Below the pieces are notes generated by a model that was given only the letters and a program-made list of their open reading frames with translations, was not told the origin of the DNA and did not search any database. Below, one piece after another: positions 1 through 50,371 of a DNA stretch of 50,371 nt. Origin of the DNA: a virus; IMG/VR virus record IMGVR_UViG_3300015371_000056, positions 1-50,371 of that record, one strand, 5' to 3'. Numbering within the stretch: position 1 is the stretch's first letter; every line of letters starts with the position of its first letter. The position numbers and the translations under genes were made by a program.

Positions 1-354
1 GAGAAAGTCGCCAGTGACAGCAGATGTCGTCGTCAGTGTCCCTGGCGTTTGTACGCCACGAATGGTCATACAGAGATGCTCTGCTTGCACTACCACAATC
101 ACTCCGCGTGGTTCGAGATGCTCAGCCAAGAACTCTGAGATCTCACGGGTGACACGCTCCTGGACCTGTAGTCGTCGCGCGTACCTATCCACAACACGCT
201 TGAGCTTTGACAAACCACAGATGACATCCCTGGGAATGTATCCGATGTGTGCGTGCCCGACGAATGGCAGGAGGTGGTGCTCACAGAGAGAATAGAGCGG
301 GATGTCCCACTGACAAATCATCTGGTCAGCGCCCTCAGCATCGAACGTCTTCCA
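1..354. repeat. Left copy of the terminal overlap (circle closure)
   Basis: Bases 1-354 match 50018-50371 without gaps, with 16 substitutions (about 95.5% identity; counted by eye at 49, 70, 85, 88, 91, 115, 127, 151, 169, 181, 187, 193, 208, 214, 244 and 292). Both copies lie inside folE in the same frame, and every change is silent. The ends therefore look like a circular map opened inside a gene rather than a physical genome end. The unique length would be about 50,017 bp. The silent differences suggest two co-existing variants. Confidence 0.9.
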
Positions 355-525
355 CCACTCTAGATAGTTGTCGTGGTACCCACTCGTTAGATCGCCCATC
401 GCTCGCGCGACACGAGCGGGCGTCTCACGCAGTCCTTCCCGGGATGGGTTCTCGCCTACCGCCTCGATGATCGCCTCAGCAGCGCGCGTTAGAACGCGAC
501 TGTTGTGGCTGGGCTCAGTACCCAC
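1..525 (-). CDS. folE: GTP cyclohydrolase I, FolE (5' part, runs off the left edge)
   Basis: GTP cyclohydrolase I opens the ring of GTP to make dihydroneopterin triphosphate, the first step toward preQ0. The protein shows the family signature GLRETPARVA at about residues 31-40, the zinc-binding CEHH near residue 81, and a later Cys in EHLCMTIRG. The start chosen is GTG at 525: it has a GGGGGA Shine-Dalgarno 6-8 nt upstream and overlaps the queE stop by 11 nt. An in-frame ATG at 549 without a clear ribosome site would add 8 residues. The 3' end of the gene is at 49955-50371, and the joined protein is about 195 aa, normal for FolE. Confidence 0.93.
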   Translation of the reverse strand, partial: MGTEPSHNSRVLTRAAEAIIEAVGENPSREGLRETPARVARAMGDLTSGYHDNYLEWWKTFDAEGADQMICQWDIPLYSLCEHHLLPFVGHAHIGYIPRDVICGLSKLKRVVDRYARRLQVQERVTREISEFLAEHLEPRGVIVVVQAEHLCMTIRGVQTPGTLTTTSAVTGDFL

Positions 526-1315
526 GAGCGTTCCCCCAAAGGAGCACATGCTGCTGAGAGAAGATACGTACATCAGCAAAGCGTTGGTCTTCGAGGATTC
601 TCTCTGTCCACTTGCGCTGGTTCTGCAGGACTAGGTCAGCAGTTGCCCACCAGTCCATGTTCAGGTCTGGGTGAGGATTGCCAACTGTTGGAAGTGAGGG
701 ATCATTGTTTCCGATGGACAGAAACAGCTCACAGGTGTTACCCCAGTGATTCTTGACTTCCGCTGCAAACTCGAGATCCTCATCTGTGAAGATGGGTACC
801 TTGAGGTAAGGCAGTGGGAACGATCCCCTGTCTTGTGCCTCAGCCCACTCACACTGCATCTGGATCGTGCGCGTGAGGATTCGGTCAAAGTCGCCGAAAC
901 TCCATGCCATGCCAGACGATGGAGGCTTAGGAGAGAAGCAGAGATCATCGACTTTGCCGAACCACTCACGGAAGACACTTCCTTGAGTCTCCAGCATCAC
1001 CTTTTGACTTCTAGCGTGAAGGAGGTCAATCAAGTGGCTGAGGTTGAGTAGTGCTGGGTTACCTCCAGTGAGCACGATCCAGGTTGGAGAAAGTCCTGAG
1101 TCAATGTCGAGTGCGCTCAACTTGCCGAGGATCCCCCAAGGATTCATCTTCTCCAACTTTGCCACTTGGTCAGGAAGCACTGCGTGAGGGGTGTCACACC
1201 AACCACATCGGTAGTCGCACCCACCGAAACGGACGAAGTGGCAGGGTGCACCAACGTTGCGACCCTCACCTTGAATCGTCGGGCCGAAGATCTCTGCGAC
1301 ACGGAAATCAGTCAA
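515..1315 (-). CDS. queE: 7-carboxy-7-deazaguanine synthase, QueE (radical SAM)
   Basis: QueE turns 6-carboxytetrahydropterin into 7-carboxy-7-deazaguanine using S-adenosylmethionine, a 4Fe-4S cluster and Mg2+. The N-terminus has FGPTIQGEGRNVG, then the cluster motif CX3CX2C (C33, C37, C40 in CDYRCGWCDT), then LTGGNPAL. The TTG at 1315 is preferred because GAGG lies 7 nt upstream and the start overlaps the queD stop by 8 nt. An ATG at 1336 (7 residues longer) is possible but has a poor ribosome site. It sits in the order queF-queD-queE-folE and is translationally coupled on both sides. At about 267 aa it is slightly longer than many QueE proteins. Confidence 0.93.
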   Translation of the reverse strand: MTDFRVAEIFGPTIQGEGRNVGAPCHFVRFGGCDYRCGWCDTPHAVLPDQVAKLEKMNPWGILGKLSALDIDSGLSPTWIVLTGGNPALLNLSHLIDLLHARSQKVMLETQGSVFREWFGKVDDLCFSPKPPSSGMAWSFGDFDRILTRTIQMQCEWAEAQDRGSFPLPYLKVPIFTDEDLEFAAEVKNHWGNTCELFLSIGNNDPSLPTVGNPHPDLNMDWWATADLVLQNQRKWTERILEDQRFADVRIFSQQHVLLWGNARGY

Positions 1316-1754
1316 CTTGGCACCTCGCCATTGCATTCTTCGTTTCCCACAGCTCAAGGAACACGCCACCAAGTTCGAGTTCGTCTTTTAGAGTGTGAGC
1401 GAGAAAGCGCACCATGTTCTCTGCTGTTGGATTAAAGGGGAGTGGAACAATTCCCTCGTCCAGGTGAGCTAGTGTGGTTCCGTCTGGGAGTGCTAGATTG
1501 CACCTGAACAAAGGATCATCTGTCCATAGCAGCATTCTGTGATCCCAGCGATTGACTATCTCCTTGATGTCTCCGAAGTCAGCGACGAATCCTGGCTCCC
1601 TCACCACCCCAATTGCTTGAATGTGAAGGCGGTAGGTGTGGCCATGAAGACGAGCGCACTTCCCTTTGTGCCCGACGATGCGGTGCCCGGCATCGAAGTA
1701 CATCTCTAGAGAGATCTCACCCCAACTCTCTGGCATTAGTTGCTTACCAAGCAT
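1308..1754 (-). CDS. queD: 6-carboxy-5,6,7,8-tetrahydropterin synthase, QueD
   Basis: QueD converts dihydroneopterin triphosphate to 6-carboxytetrahydropterin, the substrate of QueE. The 148-aa protein has the zinc histidines H24, H37 and H39 (the latter two in LHGHTY), the catalytic Cys C33 in KGKCARLHGH, and the substrate-binding Glu in the C-terminal LWETKNA. PTAENM is also typical of the family. The ATG shares one base with the queF stop (TAATG), so the genes are coupled. The length is a little above bacterial QueD (about 120 aa), with short N- and C-terminal extensions. Confidence 0.94.
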   Translation of the reverse strand: MLGKQLMPESWGEISLEMYFDAGHRIVGHKGKCARLHGHTYRLHIQAIGVVREPGFVADFGDIKEIVNRWDHRMLLWTDDPLFRCNLALPDGTTLAHLDEGIVPLPFNPTAENMVRFLAHTLKDELELGGVFLELWETKNAMARCQVD

Positions 1755-2182
1755 TAGGCCACCGCCTTGATTGAGATGCCTCCGCGAGATTTTTGGATAA
1801 GTGTGACGCGGACCTGCTCTTCGTCACACCCTAGTGCTTCGATAACCGTGTCACGGATATGGACTGCGAGTGACTCACAGAAGACACCTTGATTCTGCTC
1901 GAAGCTGTTTCGCATGATGTTCTGGAACCAGATTTTCAAACTCTTCGACTCGATCAGCTTTTCTGTCTGAGCGAGTTCGACCTCTACTCTGTAGAAGTCA
2001 GGCTGCTTTGTGATTGGACAGATGCTCATCACTTCGTCTGAAGACATAGAGACAAGAATGCAGCCAGGATTCTCGAACGTCTCTAGACCGACGTAGTGTT
2101 CTGACCCTGAGTGCCCGAGAGCCTCAAATTGAGGCTGCTCGGGCATCGGGACATCGCTGTCCAAGAAGCGATGACTTTCCAT
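1754..2182 (-). CDS. queF: NADPH-dependent 7-cyano-7-deazaguanine reductase, QueF
   Basis: QueF reduces the nitrile of preQ0 to the aminomethyl group of preQ1. The nucleophilic Cys is C55 in SICPITKQPD, with D62 beside it. The NADPH-binding signature ESKSLKIW is at residues 78-85. Its presence argues for a true reductase rather than the amidino-transferring QueF-L seen in some archaea and phages. The length (142 aa) is that of the unimodular QueF type. QueF in a phage that also has DpdA suggests the final DNA base could be preQ1 rather than preQ0; that is inference. The gene follows a DUF669 gene with a 2-nt gap. Confidence 0.93.
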   Translation of the reverse strand: MESHRFLDSDVPMPEQPQFEALGHSGSEHYVGLETFENPGCILVSMSSDEVMSICPITKQPDFYRVEVELAQTEKLIESKSLKIWFQNIMRNSFEQNQGVFCESLAVHIRDTVIEALGCDEEQVRVTLIQKSRGGISIKAVA

Positions 2183-2184
2183 CG

Positions 2185-2679
2185 CTACTTGAACTTCTTC
2201 TTGCCGCCGGACTTTTCGTCCTTCTTCTTGCTGGCACCCTTCTCCTTCTTCTCACCCTGCTTCGGCGTGTCGGAAGAGATCAGAGTGTCAACGTTGAGCG
2301 ACGGCTTGTTGTTGTAGCTGCCGATGGAGAAGACACCTACTGCAGGCAGACCACTGAGCTCAGGGGTCGTGACTAGCATCGTGTCCTCGTCGTAGTCGAT
2401 GTCTAGCTCGTCGTCGTACAGGCCTAGGTTCTCCAGGACCTCCTTGAGCTTGAACAGTGCCTTAGGCGAGAAGGAAGTGTTCAGCCAACCCTTGCGACCT
2501 TTGAACTCGCCATCACTGACAGTGAGTTCCCAGGACAGGTAGTCGTACTTGTCCTCCGACTGCGCCTCGACGTACTCGACCTTCTCGATCAGCACCGGAT
2601 GCTCACCTTCGAATGGCTCGAAGTCCTGAACATCCGAGAAATCGACAGTTACTCTTGCCACGTCAATCCTCCTTGCCAC
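2185..2679 (-). CDS. DUF669-like protein, putative ssDNA-binding partner of Sak4
   Basis: The 164-aa protein starts MARRIDVARVTVDFSDV and has the DUF669 pattern: a compact beta-rich domain containing W-E-L-T-V and G-R-K-GWLNTSF, then LGL near residue 90. It ends in a lysine-rich tail (KKKDEKSGGKKKFK). Proteins of this family are usually encoded next to a RecA/Sak4-type ATPase, as here, and are thought to bind single-stranded DNA during phage recombination. The family call is from pattern and context. The basic tail fits nucleic-acid binding. Confidence 0.7.
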   Translation of the reverse strand: MARRIDVARVTVDFSDVQDFEPFEGEHPVLIEKVEYVEAQSEDKYDYLSWELTVSDGEFKGRKGWLNTSFSPKALFKLKEVLENLGLYDDELDIDYDEDTMLVTTPELSGLPAVGVFSIGSYNNKPSLNVDTLISSDTPKQGEKKEKGASKKKDEKSGGKKKFK

Positions 2680-3622: not shown

Positions 3623-4711
3623 CTAAACTCCTTCCGGTATAGTGTGACGGGGTGGTGCAACTTCATAACTGCTTTCGATGATCCACTCGATGTCACTCTG
3701 TTCTTCCATCGCCTGGCAAAGAGGCATCACTGGGCAACCAGGACAGGTGTACTGAGAAGGATTCGGATAGCGCCAGTCTTCATCCTCAAGTGCGGCCTCC
3801 ATGTCTGACTGCTCGAAGTACAAACGGCGCTCAAAGGAGAGGAGTTCTTCCTTGTTGCGTACAATAGGTCCAAGACGCTGGAAGAACTGCGACCAACCTT
3901 TCTCTTTGAGGTAGGCCAGGTATTCCTTGTACTCAGCCTTATCGAACCCATGCTCTTTGATCCCATCTAGGTAGAGGTCATAGGTTGTGCGCTGACTCTT
4001 ATCCTGTGACAACTTCGTGTCATTAGAGATTAAGCGAGGAGGTTTCGGAGGATCCTTGAGGAGAACGTTGTACCAAAAACTCTTTAGAGGTTTCCCTGAG
4101 ATCCTCCACCAGATGTAAGAGTACCCAGTGATCTGGTCATCCACATCTAGCGCACGATCTGATGCTTTCGAGCTGAGGTTCTTGTGGTCCCACCCGTGGT
4201 ACCCATCGTCGCGCTGGAACACCAAGTCGATACGTCCAGAGAGTAGTGGGGTGCCAGGAAGCTCCTCACGAGTAAGATGGTCGAGGATTGGCACGAATGA
4301 CCTGTCCTCGACACCTACAGCGATCACCTTAGTGAAGAAGGGATCTGCACGGTCATACCGGTCGTAGTAGACGAGTGTCTGCTCACCGACCTCCTTGTAG
4401 CGCAGCCACTCTTCTTCGATACCCATGGAGTAGAGAGGACCATACTCATCCTTGAGTATCTGATTCTCTCTATCCCATGCCCCTCTGAAGGCGTCAATCG
4501 CTGTGGATACCTTGCGTGGTGGCCTTGTGCTGCGTGAGGAGGTGGGTCTGTAGTAGGCATCTAGTGCTTCATGCATCACATCGCCATAGATGAGGTACCA
4601 GGTGACCTTCCCTCGCGCACGCAACCGCAGCACATTGTCGAGATACCAACTGCGGCGGCAGGTTCTGAAGGCCTGGCGCTCTGTAACAGTGGTGTGAAAG
4701 CGTGCGCTCAT
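3623..4711 (-). CDS. PD-(D/E)XK nuclease of the Cas4/RecB type
   Basis: The 362-aa protein begins with a Cys-containing helix (RTCRRSWYLDNVLRLR) and has a C-terminal cysteine cluster YTCPGCPVMPLC. Together these are the four-Cys iron-sulfur arrangement of Cas4 and AddB-like nucleases. The nuclease core reads GRIDLVFQRDDGYHGWDHKN, with the Asp and the D-x-K-like pair in place, followed by DDQITGYSYIWW. It probably acts as a DNA exonuclease in recombination with the Sak4-like ATPase. A promoter with -10 TACTGT only 7 nt upstream of the ATG suggests a leaderless mRNA. Confidence 0.85.
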   Translation of the reverse strand: MSARFHTTVTERQAFRTCRRSWYLDNVLRLRARGKVTWYLIYGDVMHEALDAYYRPTSSRSTRPPRKVSTAIDAFRGAWDRENQILKDEYGPLYSMGIEEEWLRYKEVGEQTLVYYDRYDRADPFFTKVIAVGVEDRSFVPILDHLTREELPGTPLLSGRIDLVFQRDDGYHGWDHKNLSSKASDRALDVDDQITGYSYIWWRISGKPLKSFWYNVLLKDPPKPPRLISNDTKLSQDKSQRTTYDLYLDGIKEHGFDKAEYKEYLAYLKEKGWSQFFQRLGPIVRNKEELLSFERRLYFEQSDMEAALEDEDWRYPNPSQYTCPGCPVMPLCQAMEEQSDIEWIIESSYEVAPPRHTIPEGV

Positions 4712-44177: not shown

Positions 44178-46856
44178 CTAGGCGACGAGTTCAAGGGGTT
44201 CCTCCTCCTCGCCGAGTTCCTGCTCCAATGTGCGCACGCCGAAGTGTTCTGCCTCCTCCTTACACTCTCCCCAGTTCGGCCCGACTGCAACATCAGCGAC
44301 GAAGGGAAGGTTGTAAGGCAGCGATTCACCTACCTGGAATGGTGAGTGCTCAAGCGTGGGCAGTGTGACTTTGCAGAACTCTGGCAAGTCGTTCTCCATC
44401 GTTTCCTTGATAAGTGCAGCCACCTCGCGCACATGAGACACGAGACACTCCACCATGATCGAGTCGTGGACAGTGAACACTACTCTAGCCACTGCGGGAT
44501 CGAACTTCTCCATGAGGCGAACGATTGCCCAGGTCGTCATCTGAGCTGCGAATCCTTGAATGGGAGTGTTAACTGCCTGCCGCTCGATGTGCCCACGCTC
44601 TGAGTCGAGGATCAGATCGAAGCGCCTGCGATGCCCTGTGGGCGCCTCGACATACTGCTTCTGGAGGCTGTCCTTCTTGACTTCGTCCATCCAGTCGAAC
44701 AGGATCTTGTAGCCCACCTTGAACTTGGCGAAGTAAGCGTCAATCTCCTTGTTAGTCCATGAGCGCCCAGACATCTCGACCAGGTTGTCCATCTCAGGTC
44801 CAGTGGCGATGCTGCGTGCGCCTCGTCCATAGATCACGCCGAAGTTCATGCACTTAGCGAGGTACCTCTCGTACTTGGTGATCTTGCTCTTAGGCTTGTT
44901 CCACAGCATCAGCGCTACTTCTTGGTGGATGTCTGCTCCGTCTTTGTAAGCCTGGATGAGTACTTCATCCTGAGAGAAGAGACCTGCAACGCGGAGTTCC
45001 AACTGGCTATAGTCAGCTTCGAGAAGCATGCAACCATCTGCTGGGATGTATGCCTTACGGATGTCATAGCCAACATGGGACGCATCAGGGATGTTCTGCA
45101 GGTTTGGATTGCTGCACGAAGTTCGTCCAGTTGCCGTTCCGAAGTAGAAGTCACCTCTGATCCTTCCGTCGTCGTCAAGACGTTCAAGGAGGCCGTTCAC
45201 GTAAGTGCCAAGAATCTTGCTCTTCACGCGGTAGGAGAGAATGAGGTTGATTAGTTTGGCTGCTGCCGGGTAGTCCTTTGCAACTTGGCGAGCGAGAACC
45301 TTGAGAGTGTCACTGTTCGTTGTAACCTCTCCTGGCTTTCTCTTGTACGCATACCTACCGACCCCAGTCGGCATAGCGAGGCCGAGGCCTCCTTCATCCC
45401 CTGCATTGTAGAGAGCCTCCTTAACTTGCTTCGATGAGTTCGGGTTGAACTCTGGGCCTTTGGGATGCTCAGTTTCAGCCTGAACGATCTTCCGAATTTG
45501 CTCCATCTCTGACTCAAGGACCTCTTCAATGTGCGCCTTCATCTGGAGGAGGTAAGGAACGTCCACCTTCGCACCATCGAGTTCCATCCGCGCGAACGCC
45601 ATGGTCACTGGCACCAGGAGATCCTCGTGGTAGTCCCAGAGGCGTGAGGACTCTTCATCCATCCTCTCACGGATAGCAGGGAACAGTCTGGCTGTGTGGT
45701 AGCAATCCTCACCCATGTAGCGAAGCATCGACTCCCACATCTCTTCTTTGCGATCATCGCTAGGTGCTGACCAGAGATCCTTCGGGAGGGGAATCAGTGG
45801 CGCTACATCTTCGACTGGGATGTCACGTCCGACTCTCTTGCCACGCCAGTCAGGCTCCTCACCGAACGCCTCCTCGTGCCACTCGCGCCAGATCTTGCGT
45901 GCCTTCTCTGGATGCTCATCACAGAACGCTTCTCGCCAAGCGTCCTGCATCCCTGGGTGTGGATCTGCTTTGAAGTACTCGAACAGCCACTCTCCCATGT
46001 GGATGTCATACTCAGGTGCATCGAAGTAAAGACGAGAGAGTAGTTTCAACCCAAGGTGCCTGTAGCGATTGAGCGGACGTTCGTCCAATGTGTATTGCAT
46101 CAGCATCGTGTCAGCAGGTTGCTGCTGAAAGGGGAAGATGCCGAAGTGATTCCAGATGTGCTTTACGTCGAACTTGGCGTTATGGAAGACGAAGCGTCCT
46201 TTGTAGCGCTTCAGGAAGGAGAGGACTTCCTTGCCGATGAGTTCATATGGGACACAGAGGACGTAGCCTGAATCATCCTGGTTAAGAGCTGCGAATCCGA
46301 TCCCGAGGACTTCAGCACCATAAGTGCGGATGCCTGTTGTCTCTGTATCGCAGCCAAGGAACGAAGCGTCGTGGAGATCTTTGAGGAGGGATAGATCCTT
46401 GCGGGTCTCAATGAGGATGGTTTCGATCTCTGGAAGATCCTGAGGCGCATCTTGCATACTCACTTTCTCTACATCGTGCGCGAGGTCACGAAAAAAGTCA
46501 GTGTCCTTGACGATGGTGGAGGGGGAGAATGAGCAGACAGTGAACTTACCATTAGGCGCCCAGAACCCACGGCCACGAATCCTAGTAATAGGCTTCACTG
46601 CATCCGCTTGGAAGACAGTTGCTGCCGAGATGGCACCAAGGCAGAGGATCTTGTCGTGCTTGCGTGACTCGGCAAGGATGCGCTCTGACTGAGGCAACCA
46701 ATCCTCAGGCTTGAGCTTCTTCAGTTCCTTGTCGCTCATCTTGCTGACGACGTTGGTCAGTTCATACTCTTCACCGAAGGCCTGCATCAGAGCATGAACG
46801 ATGTTCTTGTGGTGTCCTGAGAGGATCGGCGTATCGTGGACGACGAGAATGCTCAC
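44178..46856 (-). CDS. DNA polymerase I with N-terminal UDG-like and 3'-5' exonuclease domains
   Basis: Residues 1-130 look like a uracil-glycosylase fold (ILCLGAISAATVF near 70-82 and CSFSPSTIV near 108-116). The DEDD exonuclease starts at FLGCDTETTG (D170, E172) with FVFHNAKFDVKHIW further on. The polymerase has motif A EADYSQLELRVAG, motif B KCMNFGVIYGRGARSIA and motif C FTVHDSIM. At 892 aa it is the replicative polymerase of the phage. It ends about 150 nt from the late terminator. Overlaps the upstream gene by ATGA. Confidence 0.93.
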   Translation of the reverse strand: MSILVVHDTPILSGHHKNIVHALMQAFGEEYELTNVVSKMSDKELKKLKPEDWLPQSERILAESRKHDKILCLGAISAATVFQADAVKPITRIRGRGFWAPNGKFTVCSFSPSTIVKDTDFFRDLAHDVEKVSMQDAPQDLPEIETILIETRKDLSLLKDLHDASFLGCDTETTGIRTYGAEVLGIGFAALNQDDSGYVLCVPYELIGKEVLSFLKRYKGRFVFHNAKFDVKHIWNHFGIFPFQQQPADTMLMQYTLDERPLNRYRHLGLKLLSRLYFDAPEYDIHMGEWLFEYFKADPHPGMQDAWREAFCDEHPEKARKIWREWHEEAFGEEPDWRGKRVGRDIPVEDVAPLIPLPKDLWSAPSDDRKEEMWESMLRYMGEDCYHTARLFPAIRERMDEESSRLWDYHEDLLVPVTMAFARMELDGAKVDVPYLLQMKAHIEEVLESEMEQIRKIVQAETEHPKGPEFNPNSSKQVKEALYNAGDEGGLGLAMPTGVGRYAYKRKPGEVTTNSDTLKVLARQVAKDYPAAAKLINLILSYRVKSKILGTYVNGLLERLDDDGRIRGDFYFGTATGRTSCSNPNLQNIPDASHVGYDIRKAYIPADGCMLLEADYSQLELRVAGLFSQDEVLIQAYKDGADIHQEVALMLWNKPKSKITKYERYLAKCMNFGVIYGRGARSIATGPEMDNLVEMSGRSWTNKEIDAYFAKFKVGYKILFDWMDEVKKDSLQKQYVEAPTGHRRRFDLILDSERGHIERQAVNTPIQGFAAQMTTWAIVRLMEKFDPAVARVVFTVHDSIMVECLVSHVREVAALIKETMENDLPEFCKVTLPTLEHSPFQVGESLPYNLPFVADVAVGPNWGECKEEAEHFGVRTLEQELGEEEEPLELVA

Positions 46857-47089
46857 AGTTCTTCCTCGTACCTACGGCGGAAGACGAACAGTCCACCTAC
46901 CACTGTCTTGCCACCTGACAATTCGCAGTCGCTGTGTGCGAGAAACCAGTCGTCATCTGACTTGCACTCCTCAGGATCTCTAAACACTGAACACAACTCT
47001 CCAACTGCGTCCTTGCAGTCGCGCATAGCCTCTAGGAGTGCATCGTCGTAGTTAGGCCCACTGGCCTCTACCTTTATGTTCTCACACAC
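46853..47089 (-). CDS. Hypothetical protein, 78 aa
   Basis: It starts MCENIKVEASGPNYDDALLE and contains four Cys (one at position 2; DCKDAVGELCSVF; EECKSDD; HSDCELS). It ends RRRYEEEL. It sits between dpdA and the polymerase gene, coupled to both by overlap. No family recognised; it may be small and metal-binding. Confidence 0.65.
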   Translation of the reverse strand: MCENIKVEASGPNYDDALLEAMRDCKDAVGELCSVFRDPEECKSDDDWFLAHSDCELSGGKTVVGGLFVFRRRYEEEL

Positions 47090-47937
47090 TATGCCGCTGC
47101 CTTAACCTGTCCAGAAGCAAGGAGCTGGAACAGTCCGACATTGCGTAGCGCAACATGATCGAGAAAGGCATCCTCCATCTTTCGCCTGAAGTAGTTCTTA
47201 GGCCGTGTCGGGTAGTCAGGTGTGGTGCCTTCCTCGTAGGCTGTCACCAGGTCGATGTTCTTCAGCGCATATACAAATGGCTTTGCGCTATCAGTACTGC
47301 GCACCCATGGGCAGGTTGCAGCAATCTCTTCCAGACGCCAGAGGTACCTTCCCCAGCCCAGAAGGTGCACCTGCATCTTGATCCCGCGCTGGAGAAGGTG
47401 TGCGCGAAGCGGGTAGATGTCGTTCTCCAGCAGCCTCAGTGTCCCTCCTGACCAGGTCTCATAGTCCTTAGAGATTCCAATGACGAAGTCCTGGCGAATC
47501 TTGTAACGCTTAGCAGCGAAGGTGTGGATGTCTACCAGACACTCTAGGCAGTCTCGCCACGTCTGATAGTCACGTCCCTGAGGCACGTACATCAGCGCAG
47601 GATCAAGGTTGACCATGATCTCGCTGTCCCCCTCGTGCCAGGCTTCGTGCGCACACAGTGCAGCCTCAACTGTCTTCTCAGCATCCTCTAGCGCATCAGG
47701 GACAACAACCTCCTGAGCAGCTAGTTCCCGTGCCCAGTGTGCAAGGTTCATAGCGTTGTCACCTGAACCATGCTCATGTGCTGAGTTGTCGAGGACGAGG
47801 TAAGCACCCTGATCCCGCTGCCGCCTGTAGTGGATGAAGTAATGCGGGTCTTCAAGCAGGTGAGACAGCAGTAGGTGGAAGTCACCCAGCCCATAGCGCT
47901 TTAGCGCAGGAGTCGGTGGAATTAAAGCAGCCTTCAA
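47089..47937 (-). CDS. dpdA: DpdA-like DNA 7-deazaguanine transglycosylase
   Basis: DpdA exchanges guanine in DNA for a 7-deazaguanine base. The protein has the phage DpdA/TGT-like marks: YLVLDNSAHEHG (D50), VVVPDALEDAEKT (D81), FVIGISKDYETW, MQVHLLGWGRY (the VHLLG strand of the TGT barrel), and VRSTDSAKPFVYAL. At 282 aa it is the short phage type. It lies in the same leftward transcript as queC and folE. Confidence is high for the family; the base actually inserted is not known. Confidence 0.88.
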   Translation of the reverse strand: MKAALIPPTPALKRYGLGDFHLLLSHLLEDPHYFIHYRRQRDQGAYLVLDNSAHEHGSGDNAMNLAHWARELAAQEVVVPDALEDAEKTVEAALCAHEAWHEGDSEIMVNLDPALMYVPQGRDYQTWRDCLECLVDIHTFAAKRYKIRQDFVIGISKDYETWSGGTLRLLENDIYPLRAHLLQRGIKMQVHLLGWGRYLWRLEEIAATCPWVRSTDSAKPFVYALKNIDLVTAYEEGTTPDYPTRPKNYFRRKMEDAFLDHVALRNVGLFQLLASGQVKAAA

Positions 47938-47938
47938 G

Positions 47939-48700
47939 TCAACCCCTTTCCCAGACGGTGATAGTTGTGACTGGGATCATCTTGTTTTGGATGCACCACT
48001 TCAGTTTGCTCTTGACTTGCGGAATCGCCGTCTTGATCCCGAAGTATCGTGCCCACTCCTGGAATCTGTCAAGAATGGAGAGAAGATCTTCCAGATCCAT
48101 TTCTTTCACAGTGTCTACTTGCTCGAACTGGCACTGCGGAGTTGGAGTCATTGCCCACGCGCGTCCGTATGGCTTCTTGAGGACATATGTGGCCCTATGG
48201 CGCATTTGAATGAATTGGAGCTGGGGAGCAGAGACGCATGAAAGTGGAGGAGCGGGCCATTGAGCACAACCGAGACCTCCGGTGGGTTTCTCCACAGTGA
48301 GAAAGTCGCAGATAGGATTCTGGTTCTGGTCGTTAGTGAAAACAAGTTTTGGCTTCCCATTAACCCACACTTTCCTCTCTACAAATCCTGTCTTGTCCTG
48401 GAGAAGTGTCTCGTACTCGCTAGGCACGTAGTCAAGAGTGAACTTCTGACAGCACGCAGTGCAACCACTAGTACAGATGAACTTGCGGAACAGTGAAGGT
48501 GTGAGGAGCACAGCATCTACAGGTGCATTGAACACGCGCTCTTTGAGGATGCGTCCAGCAGGTGTAGTAGGCTGGTACCTCACCTCGTCGGGAGAGAGCA
48601 AGGCGATCTGCCCGAGGATCTTCTCCACACTGTCAGCGTGCCCTACTGAGTTCTTGCGTGGTGTCTCTTGGCTGCGGAGAAGTTCTATGCGCTTCTGCAC
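47939..48700 (-). CDS. YkgJ-like Cys-cluster protein, 253 aa
   Basis: The central CTSGCTACCQKFTLDYVPSE is the C-x3-C-x2-CC motif of YkgJ/UPF0153 proteins, and CDFLT...GLGCAQWPAPPLSC gives the second set. This family is thought to bind zinc or iron; its reaction is unknown. A 65-residue N-terminal part and a C-terminal helical part with two more Cys extend the domain. It lies immediately upstream of dpdA in transcription order with a 1-nt gap, so a link to DNA modification is a fair guess. Confidence 0.68.
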   Translation of the reverse strand: MQKRIELLRSQETPRKNSVGHADSVEKILGQIALLSPDEVRYQPTTPAGRILKERVFNAPVDAVLLTPSLFRKFICTSGCTACCQKFTLDYVPSEYETLLQDKTGFVERKVWVNGKPKLVFTNDQNQNPICDFLTVEKPTGGLGCAQWPAPPLSCVSAPQLQFIQMRHRATYVLKKPYGRAWAMTPTPQCQFEQVDTVKEMDLEDLLSILDRFQEWARYFGIKTAIPQVKSKLKWCIQNKMIPVTTITVWERG

Positions 48701-48915
48701 GCCTCACGCTCCTTCTCTACTTTGATAAGTCGGTTGAGGTACCAACGTGCCTTCTCTAGATCTTTCACACCGTCTTTGTGCCTAAACCTCGCTACGTACT
48801 TGACGATGTTCCCCTGGTAGAAGTCGAGGTCAAGTCCATCAATGACATCTATGACCTCGATAGTGCCAAAGGTGTAGTGGGGTGGGTGGTTAATCAGATC
48901 AGGTTCCGGATCCAT
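48685..48915 (-). CDS. DUF3310 protein (SaV-like), 76 aa
   Basis: LINHPPHYTFGTIEVIDVID, FYQGNIVKYVARFRHKDG and DLEKARWYLNRLIKVE are the three blocks of DUF3310, a small protein of many phages sometimes called a nucleotide kinase without strong proof. It overlaps the next gene by 16 nt. Confidence 0.88.
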   Translation of the reverse strand: MDPEPDLINHPPHYTFGTIEVIDVIDGLDLDFYQGNIVKYVARFRHKDGVKDLEKARWYLNRLIKVEKEREACRSA

Positions 48916-49243
48916 CTATACCCACCCCCTGAACCGTGTCGAAGAAGTCCTTGCTGAAGTTATCAGCATCTTCTGCAGGGAGTTTCCAGATGTACCTGGT
49001 GTTGAATGCCTGGTCGAAGAGGACAAGTGCCACTCCAGTAAACTCATCCTCGTCATTGACCATGCGGAAGAGGCTGACTGCAACGTTCTTCAGCTCGATT
49101 GTTGTCTCTGTCCTGTTCTGGAGTGCTACAGCGATCTTGTGTGCTTGCAACTGCTGAAGCACATTGTCTTCTGCAGCACCTGCACGAGCTTGTGCTTCTA
49201 CTGCTCGTAGATCTCTCTGGAACTGTTCATCACGCCCTGGCAT
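48899..49243 (-). CDS. Hypothetical protein, 114 aa
   Basis: ATG 49243 (MPGRDEQFQRDLRAVEAQAR) has GGAG 7 nt upstream; ATG 49249 is possible. The N-terminal half is helical, then a beta part (TTIELKNVAVSLFRMVNDED and LVLFDQAFNTRYIW). The large upstream extension of this frame is a shadow of queC. Function unknown; coupled to queC. Confidence 0.68.
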   Translation of the reverse strand: MPGRDEQFQRDLRAVEAQARAGAAEDNVLQQLQAHKIAVALQNRTETTIELKNVAVSLFRMVNDEDEFTGVALVLFDQAFNTRYIWKLPAEDADNFSKDFFDTVQGVGIDGSGT

Positions 49244-49958
49244 TGGCATACTCCAATGGATCGGGAAAACCTGCCTCCATGAATGCTTCAAGACGAGCAT
49301 GGCATGTAGAACAGCGTCCGCACGCTGGCCTCTCACCACGGTAGCACGAATGGGTAAGGTGGTAAGGAACTTCGATCCGCATGCCGTACTGAATGATCTC
49401 TGCCTTCGTTGCCTGCTGGAAGAGTGCGTGCAGACGGACACGCTCATAGGTACCAATGAGCACTGCAGCAGCCATCGCACCAAGGAACTCTGGTGTGCAG
49501 TCAGCGTAAGCGAATCCTGCTGCATCCTCAGCGTGCATGCCACAGTAGAGAAGAGCAGTATCCCACGCAGCAAGTCCTCGTGCAGAGTTGAACCCGGACC
49601 TCAGCATGCTGTCTGCAAAAGATGCTGACTGAGCAATGAGGTTGCCGTTTCTGAACGGGACGTAAGTTGGAGACATTGTTCCCTGAGGCAGATCGTCATA
49701 GCGCATATCTTCGATCTCTTCATCTGTCGTGAGGACCCCGCCCTTGAACATCTGTGGATTGAGCGGGATGATCGAGTGCTTCACGTTGTAGTGCTCAGCG
49801 ATGAGGATTGCTTGCTGGATTTCTACTGCATGCTTTTGGCCGTACTCATATGAGACAGCCCAGACATCGTCAGGTGAGGAATCCTCAACCGCAATACCAA
49901 GAGCAGTGGTTGAGTCGAGTCCTCCAGAGAGGATGACAACCGAAAGGGGTGGTTTCAT
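49230..49958 (-). CDS. queC: 7-cyano-7-deazaguanine synthase, QueC
   Basis: QueC turns 7-carboxy-7-deazaguanine into preQ0 with ATP and ammonia. The PP-loop SGGLDSTTALG is at residues 11-21. QKHAVEIQQA and MSPTYVPFRNGNLIAQSASF are typical. The zinc site is C-terminal: HSCYRGERPACGRCSTCHAR. 242 aa, usual length. The ATG overlaps the folE stop (ATGA), so folE and queC are translated together. Confidence 0.95.
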   Translation of the reverse strand: MKPPLSVVILSGGLDSTTALGIAVEDSSPDDVWAVSYEYGQKHAVEIQQAILIAEHYNVKHSIIPLNPQMFKGGVLTTDEEIEDMRYDDLPQGTMSPTYVPFRNGNLIAQSASFADSMLRSGFNSARGLAAWDTALLYCGMHAEDAAGFAYADCTPEFLGAMAAAVLIGTYERVRLHALFQQATKAEIIQYGMRIEVPYHLTHSCYRGERPACGRCSTCHARLEAFMEAGFPDPLEYANARA

Positions 49959-50371
49959 CTAAGCCTCCTTGCTGACATCAGGCGGAGGAACTCATCGCGG
50001 GAGCCTTCCGCTGGATTGAGAAAGTCGCCAGTGACAGCAGATGTCGTCGTCAGTGTCCCTGGCGTCTGTACGCCACGAATGGTCATGCAGAGATGCTCTG
50101 CCTGTACCACCACAATCACTCCGCGTGGTTCAAGATGCTCAGCTAAGAACTCTGAGATCTCACGGGTAACACGCTCCTGGACCTGCAGTCGTCGCGCATA
50201 CCTGTCCACCACACGCTTGAGCTTGGACAATCCACAGATGACATCCCTGGGAATGTATCCAATGTGTGCGTGCCCGACGAATGGCAGGAGGTGGTGCTCA
50301 CAGAGAGAGTAGAGCGGGATGTCCCACTGACAAATCATCTGGTCAGCGCCCTCAGCATCGAACGTCTTCCA
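49955..50371 (-). CDS. folE: GTP cyclohydrolase I, FolE (3' part, continues at the left end)
   Basis: This is the C-terminal 138 residues of FolE: DIPLYSLCEHHLLPFVGHAH with the zinc Cys and His, SKLKRVVDRYARRLQVQERV, and VVQAEHLCMTIRGVQTPGTL with the last zinc Cys. It ends RDEFLRLMSARRLR. The reading frame runs off the right edge and continues at 525-355 on the circle. The stop overlaps the queC ATG. Confidence 0.93.
   Translation of the reverse strand, partial: WKTFDAEGADQMICQWDIPLYSLCEHHLLPFVGHAHIGYIPRDVICGLSKLKRVVDRYARRLQVQERVTREISEFLAEHLEPRGVIVVVQAEHLCMTIRGVQTPGTLTTTSAVTGDFLNPAEGSRDEFLRLMSARRLR
50018..50371. repeat. Right copy of the terminal overlap (circle closure)
   Basis: This is the partner of the repeat at 1-354. 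The gene reads through the end of the window: the folE 3' part is here and its 5' part is at 355-525 at the other end. Joining 50371 to 355 restores an uninterrupted folE of 195 codons plus stop. Confidence 0.9.

What the first reader, a model, noticed from the sequence alone, without database searches (positions are those of the whole stretch)
47089..50371. Complete 7-deazaguanine pathway with DpdA: self-made modified DNA, probably preQ1
folE, queD, queE, queC and queF plus a DpdA-like transglycosylase are all on one leftward transcript when the circle is closed (515-2182 and 47089-50371). QueF here keeps the NADPH-binding motif ESKSLKIW, so free preQ0 would be reduced to preQ1. Known phage and archaeal-virus systems use dPreQ0, dPreQ1, dADG or dG+. 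The gene set here predicts dPreQ1, a less common choice, as protection against host restriction.
Basis: partly seen in the sequence, partly recalled or inferred. Interest (0 to 1): 0.85.

Follow-up and report, generated by a model that had tools for sequence, protein, structure and literature searches.

The report
Phage operon for methylated preQ1 DNA

Summary
folE, queD, queE, queC, queF and a DpdA-type transglycosylase lie on one leftward block. An independent contig (L004) bridges the contig ends, so the genome is a circle of about 50,017 bp.

The product prediction needs changing.
- It was found in viruses by peptide motif alone, yet queF is present in every Ykg-bearing record long enough to judge.
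- It never co-occurs with the formyltransferase that sits beside this DpdA type in Flavobacterium phages.
- It is absent from the three viruses whose DNA was measured as dPreQ1 (Dp-1, HVTV-1, Vibrio 6E35.1a).
- It resembles FliB, a [4Fe-4S]/SAM amine methylase.

It is most likely DpdM, the dPreQ1 N-methyltransferase. That name and activity are recalled from Cui et al. 2023, which is not held here. The predicted base is therefore 7-(methylamino)methyl-7-deazaguanine (about 0.7), with plain dPreQ1 as the main rival.

DpdA belongs to the family of a Campylobacter CP220 protein. CP220 DNA has all its G replaced, so dense or complete replacement is possible. Known kind of system; no measurement exists for this phage.

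The parts
1754..2182 (-). queF, 142 aa, unimodular preQ0 nitrile reductase (preQ1 synthase)
   Evidence: Pfam QueF 7.7e-07; TIGR03139 2.8e-14, below its cut-off; best PDB matches 4f8b/5udg/4fgc, all bacterial QueF; C55, D62, ESKSLKIW and the E97 equivalent kept, His96 equivalent is Cys
1308..1754 (-). queD, 6-carboxytetrahydropterin synthase
   Evidence: PF01242 2.3e-25; CxxxHGH motif
515..1372 (-). queE, 7-carboxy-7-deazaguanine synthase (radical SAM); the true start may be further in than the TTG listed
   Evidence: TIGR03365 1.3e-62 over cut-off; CxxxCxxC
1..579 (-). folE (GTP cyclohydrolase I), 5' part, cut by the contig end
   Evidence: PF01227 5.7e-65; the intact gene is read across the junction in L004
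49955..50371 (-). folE, 3' part; the last 354 bp repeat window 1-354 at 95% (same gene, strain variant)
49230..49958 (-). queC, 7-cyano-7-deazaguanine (preQ0) synthase
   Evidence: PF06508 2.4e-46; SGGLDS and four-Cys motif
48899..49246 (-). small conserved gene between queC and DUF3310, function unknown (start uncertain)
   Evidence: no Pfam match; similar small ORF at the same place in relatives L011, L010, L091
48685..48915 (-). DUF3310 protein
   Evidence: PF11753 6.7e-18
   Evidence: relatives in QueF-bearing phages; PF03692 matched by those relatives; eight invariant Cys in 47/47; co-occurrence survey; pLDDT 90.1 model with no PDB fold match
47089..47937 (-). dpdA: 282-aa DNA-guanine transglycosylase of the Campylobacter CP220 / Flavobacterium immuto type, TTG start after GAAAGGGG
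   Evidence: tblastn to immuto DpdA 2e-10; profile hit in CP220 1.2e-59; AlphaFold model best PDB match 7ui4 DpdA 1.7e-05, then TGTs; invariant D50, D81, D216, H191, G194
2185..2679 (-). DUF669 protein (SSB-like), upstream neighbour of queF
   Evidence: PF05037 5.2e-04, just below cut-off; same place in relatives
44178..46856 (-). family A DNA polymerase downstream of dpdA: the cassette sits inside the replication block
   Evidence: PF00476 1.6e-79, PF01612 3.2e-09

Best explanation
The operon makes a hypermodified guanine for the phage's own DNA. FolE, QueD, QueE and QueC convert GTP to preQ0. QueF reduces preQ0 with NADPH to preQ1. DpdA, a TGT-fold transglycosylase, exchanges guanine in finished DNA for the 7-deazaguanine base. 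The protein at 47939-48700 (DpdM-type) then transfers a methyl group from SAM to the exposed primary amine, probably using a [4Fe-4S] cluster as FliB does on lysine, giving 2'-deoxy-7-(methylamino)methyl-7-deazaguanosine (mdPreQ1). Shown here: gene content, order, closure of the circle, TGT fold of DpdA, conserved catalytic residues, strict association of the PF03692-type gene with QueF. Inferred: the methyl transfer, whether it acts on the free base or on DNA, the density of modification, and protection against host restriction.
For: Complete gene set on one strand with overlapping or 1-4 bp spaced genes, bridged by an independent contig. DpdA: best fold match is the solved DNA preQ0 insertase, and it has annotated or profile relatives in modified phages. 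QueF residues intact apart from His96 to Cys, a change seen in 16 of 38 unimodular viral QueFs here. PF03692-type gene: found by peptide motif alone, 52 distinct loci, QueF in 36 of 39 with at least 3 kb on both sides; the other three hold QueF elsewhere in the record. Never with the formyltransferase (0 of 52), although 41 DpdA loci carry that one. In mycobacteriophages, 52 records match QueE, 3 match QueF and only Knocker has this gene, as an extra 645 bp relative to Rinkes. Measured dPreQ1 viruses lack it: Dp-1 and HVTV-1 (PMC6884629), Vibrio 6E351A = 6E35.1a (295 Da, PMC12028318; genome scan). Cellulophaga phi38:2, which has it, is reported as extensively 7-deazaguanine-modified, citing Cui 2023 (PMC11515303). 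FliB, with a PF03692-like motif, one [4Fe-4S] and eight conserved Cys, N-methylates lysine with SAM (PMC8598068); this family also has eight invariant Cys.
Against: No chemistry was measured. That this family is the DpdM of Cui et al. 2023 (NAR 51:9214, PMC10516641) is recalled, because the paper is not held. The window protein itself does not reach Pfam PF03692; only its relatives do, at 25-31% identity. The QueF His96 equivalent is Cys and QueF scores below the TIGR03139 cut-off. Sister contigs L011 and L018 have the same operon without the gene, so the core system does not need it.
Confidence: 0.7

Rival explanations
1. One reading: QueF makes preQ1, DpdA inserts it, and the DNA carries plain dPreQ1; the PF03692-type protein does something else or is inactive.
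For: QueF keeps Cys55, Asp62 and the NADPH motif. dPreQ1 is the measured base in Dp-1, HVTV-1 and Vibrio 6E351A. Window-clade contigs L011 and L018 lack the extra gene.
Against: Those three dPreQ1 viruses all lack the PF03692-type gene, whereas this phage has it beside dpdA with all eight cysteines kept.
Confidence: 0.2
2. The PF03692-type protein is an iron-sulphur or metal-handling helper for the radical SAM enzyme QueE, not a base-modifying enzyme.
For: PF03692 is named 'putative zinc- or iron-chelating domain'; QueE needs a [4Fe-4S] cluster (established knowledge).
Against: It follows QueF, not QueE: of 52 mycobacteriophage records matching QueE, only one that also has QueF has this gene. 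DpdA loci with QueE but no QueF (L031, L036) lack it.
Confidence: 0.05
3. The QueF homologue works as a QueF-like amidinotransferase and the DNA carries dG+ (archaeosine), or it is inactive and the DNA carries dPreQ0.
For: Hutinet 2019 states that QueF and QueF-L are hard to tell apart by sequence. His96 equivalent is Cys and the score is below the TIGR03139 cut-off.
Against: NADPH motif present, PDB matches only to nitrile reductases; the two viruses with QueF-L-like calls that were measured turned out to carry dPreQ1.
Confidence: 0.07
4. The genes raise queuosine in host tRNA and do not modify DNA.
For: preQ0/preQ1 genes are shared with the tRNA pathway.
Against: A DpdA of the family found in DNA-modified phages is in the operon, and the block sits between DNA polymerase A, a DUF669 protein and an AAA protein.
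Confidence: 0.03

Closest known systems
Cellulophaga phages phi38:2 / phiSM 7-deazaguanine cluster (QueF, PF03692-type protein, DpdA, QueC, QueD, QueE, FolE)
   Same: Same enzymes including the PF03692-type protein next to queF and dpdA; phi38:2 DNA reported as extensively 7-deazaguanine-modified (PMC11515303)
   Different: Its transglycosylase is of the 9g/Dp-1 type and not matched by the window's DpdA profile; PF03692-type protein about 31% identical
Flavobacterium phage vB_FspM_immuto cluster (DpdA, PurN-like formyltransferase, QueF, QueD, QueE, FolE)
   Same: Closest annotated DpdA (26% identity); a decorator gene beside dpdA
   Different: Decorator is a formyltransferase (PF00551), QueF is bimodular (306 aa), 160-kb phage
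Campylobacter phage CP220
   Same: CPT_0056 belongs to the same DpdA family (profile E 1.2e-59)
   Different: Measured base is dADG, 100% of dG (PMC8306585); no PF03692-type protein
Streptococcus phage Dp-1, Halovirus HVTV-1, Vibrio phage 6E351A (dPreQ1 DNA)
   Same: preQ0 genes plus QueF; preQ1-level modification measured
   Different: No PF03692-type gene and no DpdA of this type
FliB flagellin lysine N-methylase
   Same: PF03692-like Cys motif, eight conserved Cys, SAM-dependent methylation of a primary amine through a [4Fe-4S] cluster (PMC8598068)
   Different: Acts on protein; motif CX4CX3CC against CX3CX2CC here; no direct sequence comparison was made

Membership tests
Phage 7-deazaguanine DNA modification system | preQ0 synthesis genes folE, queD, queE, queC | tested here: met
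   catalytic motifs
Phage 7-deazaguanine DNA modification system | a DNA-guanine transglycosylase (TGT fold) | tested here: met
   best PDB fold match 7ui4 DpdA, E 1.7e-05, then TGTs; catalytic Asp positions invariant
Phage 7-deazaguanine DNA modification system | 7-deazaguanine nucleosides in virion DNA | not testable with these tools
   needs LC-MS/MS
DpdA type of Campylobacter CP220 / immuto (recalled as 'DpdA3' of Cui 2023) | sequence relation to CP220 and immuto DpdA and not to 9g/Dp-1 DpdA | tested here: met
   CP220 1.2e-59, immuto 2.0e-112; no hit in 9g, Dp-1, Pan1, phiSM, VH7D
DpdA type of Campylobacter CP220 / immuto (recalled as 'DpdA3' of Cui 2023) | complete replacement of dG | not testable with these tools
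   known for CP220; not known for this phage; window lies in a sister clade
QueF (nitrile reductase) rather than QueF-L | catalytic Cys55 and Asp62 | tested here: met
QueF (nitrile reductase) rather than QueF-L | NADPH motif E(S/L)K(S/A)hK(L/Y)(Y/F/W) | tested here: met
   ESKSLKIW, one conservative departure (I for L/Y), at residue 78
QueF (nitrile reductase) rather than QueF-L | curated NCBIfam cut-off for QueF-II | tested here: not met
   52.9 bits against 86.9; another phage QueF, that of VH7D, also falls short at 59.8
DpdM (dPreQ1 methyltransferase, recalled from Cui 2023) | homology to the PF03692-type protein of Cellulophaga phi38:2/phiSM | tested here: met
   tblastn 1e-11; BLASTP 8e-18; model matches M1PXL2, a 217-aa viral protein that I take to be the phiSM one by its length, at 4e-12
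DpdM (dPreQ1 methyltransferase, recalled from Cui 2023) | occurs with QueF (preQ1 is the substrate) | tested here: met
DpdM (dPreQ1 methyltransferase, recalled from Cui 2023) | fold not seen before for nucleic acid methylases | tested here: inconclusive
   no PDB chain matches the model (best E 0.22); agrees with the recalled statement but absence is weak evidence
DpdM (dPreQ1 methyltransferase, recalled from Cui 2023) | SAM-dependent methylation of preQ1 | not testable with these tools
   needs enzyme assay or mass spectrometry
PF03692 (CxxCxxCC) | Pfam match | tested here: inconclusive
   phiSM relative passes (25.7 bits), Pan1, Knocker and VH7D relatives below cut-off; the window protein has no match

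The most novel reading that the evidence does not exclude
A CP220-type DpdA, whose relative sits in a phage with every G replaced, works here with QueF and a FliB-like [4Fe-4S] methylase, so that most or all guanines of a 50-kb, 55% GC genome are the methylated, positively charged base mdPreQ1. A large part of the phosphate charge would then be balanced by the DNA itself. No cultured phage checked here combines this DpdA type with this decorator.
Probability: 0.22. Interest if true: 0.65.

Novelty: new member of a known kind. Interest (0 to 1): 0.42.

Why it matters
It corrects the predicted chemistry from dPreQ1 to a methylated derivative and gives a simple rule, checked against published measurements for the plain-dPreQ1 side: QueF without the PF03692-type gene gave dPreQ1 in three viruses. 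With the gene, a +14 Da base is expected. It also suggests that preQ1 decorators are modular: the formyltransferase and the PF03692-type gene are alternatives beside the same DpdA type. If replacement is dense, such phages would be largely invisible to many restriction enzymes and could be under-counted by amplification-based viromics.

Tried and rejected
Sequence-only proof that the DpdA is a TGT: Pfam PF01702 and NCBIfam NF041059 gave nothing (NF041059 also found nothing in four relatives' records), phmmer against PDB gave chance hits, and hhalign with the 9g/Dp-1-type DpdA alignment gave only 9% probability although the motifs line up. The family profile put the solved DpdA second in PDB at a weak E of 0.059. 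Only the structure comparison settled it.

Two folE genes or a duplicated segment at the ends: rejected, since L004 reads through a single folE.

PF03692-type gene as a QueE iron-sulphur helper: rejected on distribution.

I looked for a replacement decorator in window-clade contigs lacking the gene (L011, L018 and others). L011 and L018 show a clean absence with nothing extra between DUF3310 (or its equivalent) and dpdA.

Host assignment: no near relative of the structural region among phage records, and the six bacterial-genome hits of the PF03692-type family are MAG contigs with only 23-29% identity, so no host is claimed.

The key paper (Cui et al. 2023) is not held; literature searches for its terms found only papers that cite it.
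Full report
What was claimed and what is there. All six are there, at the stated coordinates and on the minus strand. The window is an IMG/VR virus record of 50,371 bases. Its first and last 354 bases match at 95% without gaps, both inside folE. A second IMG/VR contig, L004 (6,335 bases), matches window 46443-50371 at 99.98% and runs on into 1-2760 at 99.3%, agreeing with the right-hand copy at all 16 differing positions. So the ends are one folE caught in two strain variants, and the genome is a circle (or circularly permuted) of about 50,017 bp. Terminase, portal, major head protein and a 1,032-aa tape measure protein mark a tailed phage. No phage record matches its structural half by megablast.

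Order of the block, read from L004 in the direction of transcription: DUF669 gene, queF, queD, queE, folE, queC, a small gene, DUF3310, the 253-aa gene, dpdA, a 78-aa gene, DNA polymerase A. Genes overlap by 1-4 bp within queF-queC (larger overlaps depend on assumed TTG starts), and 1 bp separates the 253-aa gene from dpdA. Shine-Dalgarno-like GAAAGGGG, GAAGGAG and AAGGAGG precede dpdA, the 253-aa gene and queC.

The pathway enzymes look active. QueE has CxxxCxxC, QueC SGGLDS and four zinc-type Cys, QueD CxxxHGH; FolE has CEHH and the later Cys (sequence). QueF keeps Cys55, Asp62, the NADPH motif ESKSLKIW from residue 78 and the E97 equivalent. The His96 equivalent is Cys, as in 16 of 38 unimodular viral QueFs here. 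It matches bacterial QueF structures and no QueF-L in PDB, but it scores below the NCBIfam QueF-II cut-off.

The DpdA. There is no Pfam or NCBIfam match. tblastn over 50,697 phage records finds only Flavobacterium phage immuto DpdA at 26%. A profile from 61 relatives (A4) also finds a protein of Campylobacter phage CP220 (CPT_0056, E 1.2e-59) but nothing in 9g, Dp-1, Pan1, phiSM or VH7D, nor in 6E35.1a, HVTV-1 or phi38:2. The AlphaFold model (pLDDT 95.6, pTM 0.92) matches the solved DNA preQ0 insertase DpdA first (7ui4, E 1.7e-05), then archaeal and bacterial TGTs. D50 (LDNSAHE), D81, H191 and G194 (HLLG) and D216 (DSAKP) are invariant in 61 sequences; I read D50 and D216 as the counterparts of the TGT catalytic aspartates (inference). 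So the enzyme is a TGT-fold transglycosylase of the CP220/immuto type. CP220 and CPt10 DNA has 100% of dG replaced by dADG (PMC8306585, citing Crippen 2019). I recall this family as 'DpdA3', linked to complete replacement, from Cui et al. 2023; I could not check that here.

The missed gene. 47939-48700 encodes 253 aa with CTSGCTACC. Relatives lie beside queF and/or dpdA in Cellulophaga phiSM and phi38:2, Pseudanabaena phage Pan1 and Mycobacterium phage Knocker, otherwise unrelated phages. Relatives match PF03692. Eight cysteines are invariant in all 47 aligned members. The model is confident (pLDDT 90.1), has no match in PDB (best E 0.22), and in the viral library matches only three proteins, whose lengths (214, 304, 217 aa) are those of the Knocker, Vibrio and phiSM relatives.

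Its distribution reads like a preQ1-using enzyme. I collected loci with a short peptide motif that knows nothing of queuosine genes. Of 52 distinct loci, 39 have at least 3 kb on both sides; 36 of these have QueF there. The other three have QueF elsewhere in the record. DpdA lies within reach in 40 of 52. The formyltransferase that sits next to dpdA in the immuto clade never occurs with it (0 of 52), while among 73 distinct loci with this DpdA type 41 have the formyltransferase and 14 the PF03692-type gene. Part of that exclusion is phylogenetic, because the two decorators mostly mark different clades. But L136, in the immuto clade, carries the PF03692-type gene instead of the formyltransferase, and within the window clade the gene comes and goes. 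L011 and L018 have the same operon without it.

Isolates give cleaner contrasts. 52 Mycobacterium phage records match QueE, three match QueF, one has this gene. Knocker's queE starts 645 bp later than Rinkes's, the length of the gene. Vibrio phage 6E35.1a (6E351A) has QueF but not this gene, and its DNA was measured as dPreQ1, 295 Da, 15% of dG (PMC12028318). I take 6E351A and 6E35.1a to be the same phage from name, host and QueF. Its relative D481 has both genes. Dp-1 and HVTV-1, the other two viruses measured as dPreQ1 (PMC6884629), also lack it. Conversely phi38:2, which has it, is described as extensively 7-deazaguanine-modified, citing Cui 2023 (PMC11515303).

Mechanism. FliB, the flagellin lysine methylase, has a related Cys motif (the authors themselves compare it with PF03692), one [4Fe-4S] cluster, eight conserved Cys, and methylates a primary amine with SAM (PMC8598068). 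preQ1 offers just such an amine. From memory, Cui et al. 2023 (NAR 51:9214-9226) describe mdPreQ1 and fdPreQ1, a dPreQ1 methyltransferase DpdM with a fold new for nucleic acid methylases, and a formyltransferase DpdN. The citation is confirmed, the contents are not. Putting these together, the most likely final base is 7-(methylamino)methyl-7-deazaguanine. Shown: gene set, closure, folds, residues, association. Inferred: methyl transfer, order of insertion and methylation, density, and biological role.

Judgement. The system is a new member of the known phage 7-deazaguanine class. The pairing of a CP220-type DpdA with the PF03692-type decorator was not found in any isolate examined; it occurs in this phage and its uncultured relatives.

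Noticed in passing
L005:1457-3064: queE of a related virus is interrupted by an intein placed inside the radical-SAM CxxxCxxC motif (Pfam Intein_splicing and Hint matches); the same locus has a GIY-YIG/NUMOD3 homing endonuclease between folE and queF (3730-4635).
   Followed up: partly
L029:3823-4203: A different, short (127 aa) PF03692 protein (E 6.7e-06) lies inside the que operon of a DpdA-bearing virus that lacks the 253-aa type.
   Followed up: no
L031, L032, L033, L036: Viruses with this DpdA type but no QueF and neither decorator in the stretch held, which should carry dPreQ0 or another preQ0-level base.
   Followed up: no
L005:8954-10456; window 44178-46856: DNA polymerase A next to dpdA is fused to an N-terminal uracil-DNA-glycosylase domain in L005 (PF03167 4.6e-26); in the window polymerase the N-terminal region no longer matches that family.
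   Followed up: partly
FN667788 (CP220) 54675-55451: CPT_0056, annotated as hypothetical, is the CP220 member of this DpdA family and so a candidate for the transglycosylase behind its complete dADG replacement.
   Followed up: partly
window 1-354 and 50018-50371: 354-bp end overlap at 95% with 13 transitions among 16 differences: strain variation inside folE, not a repeat.
   Followed up: yes
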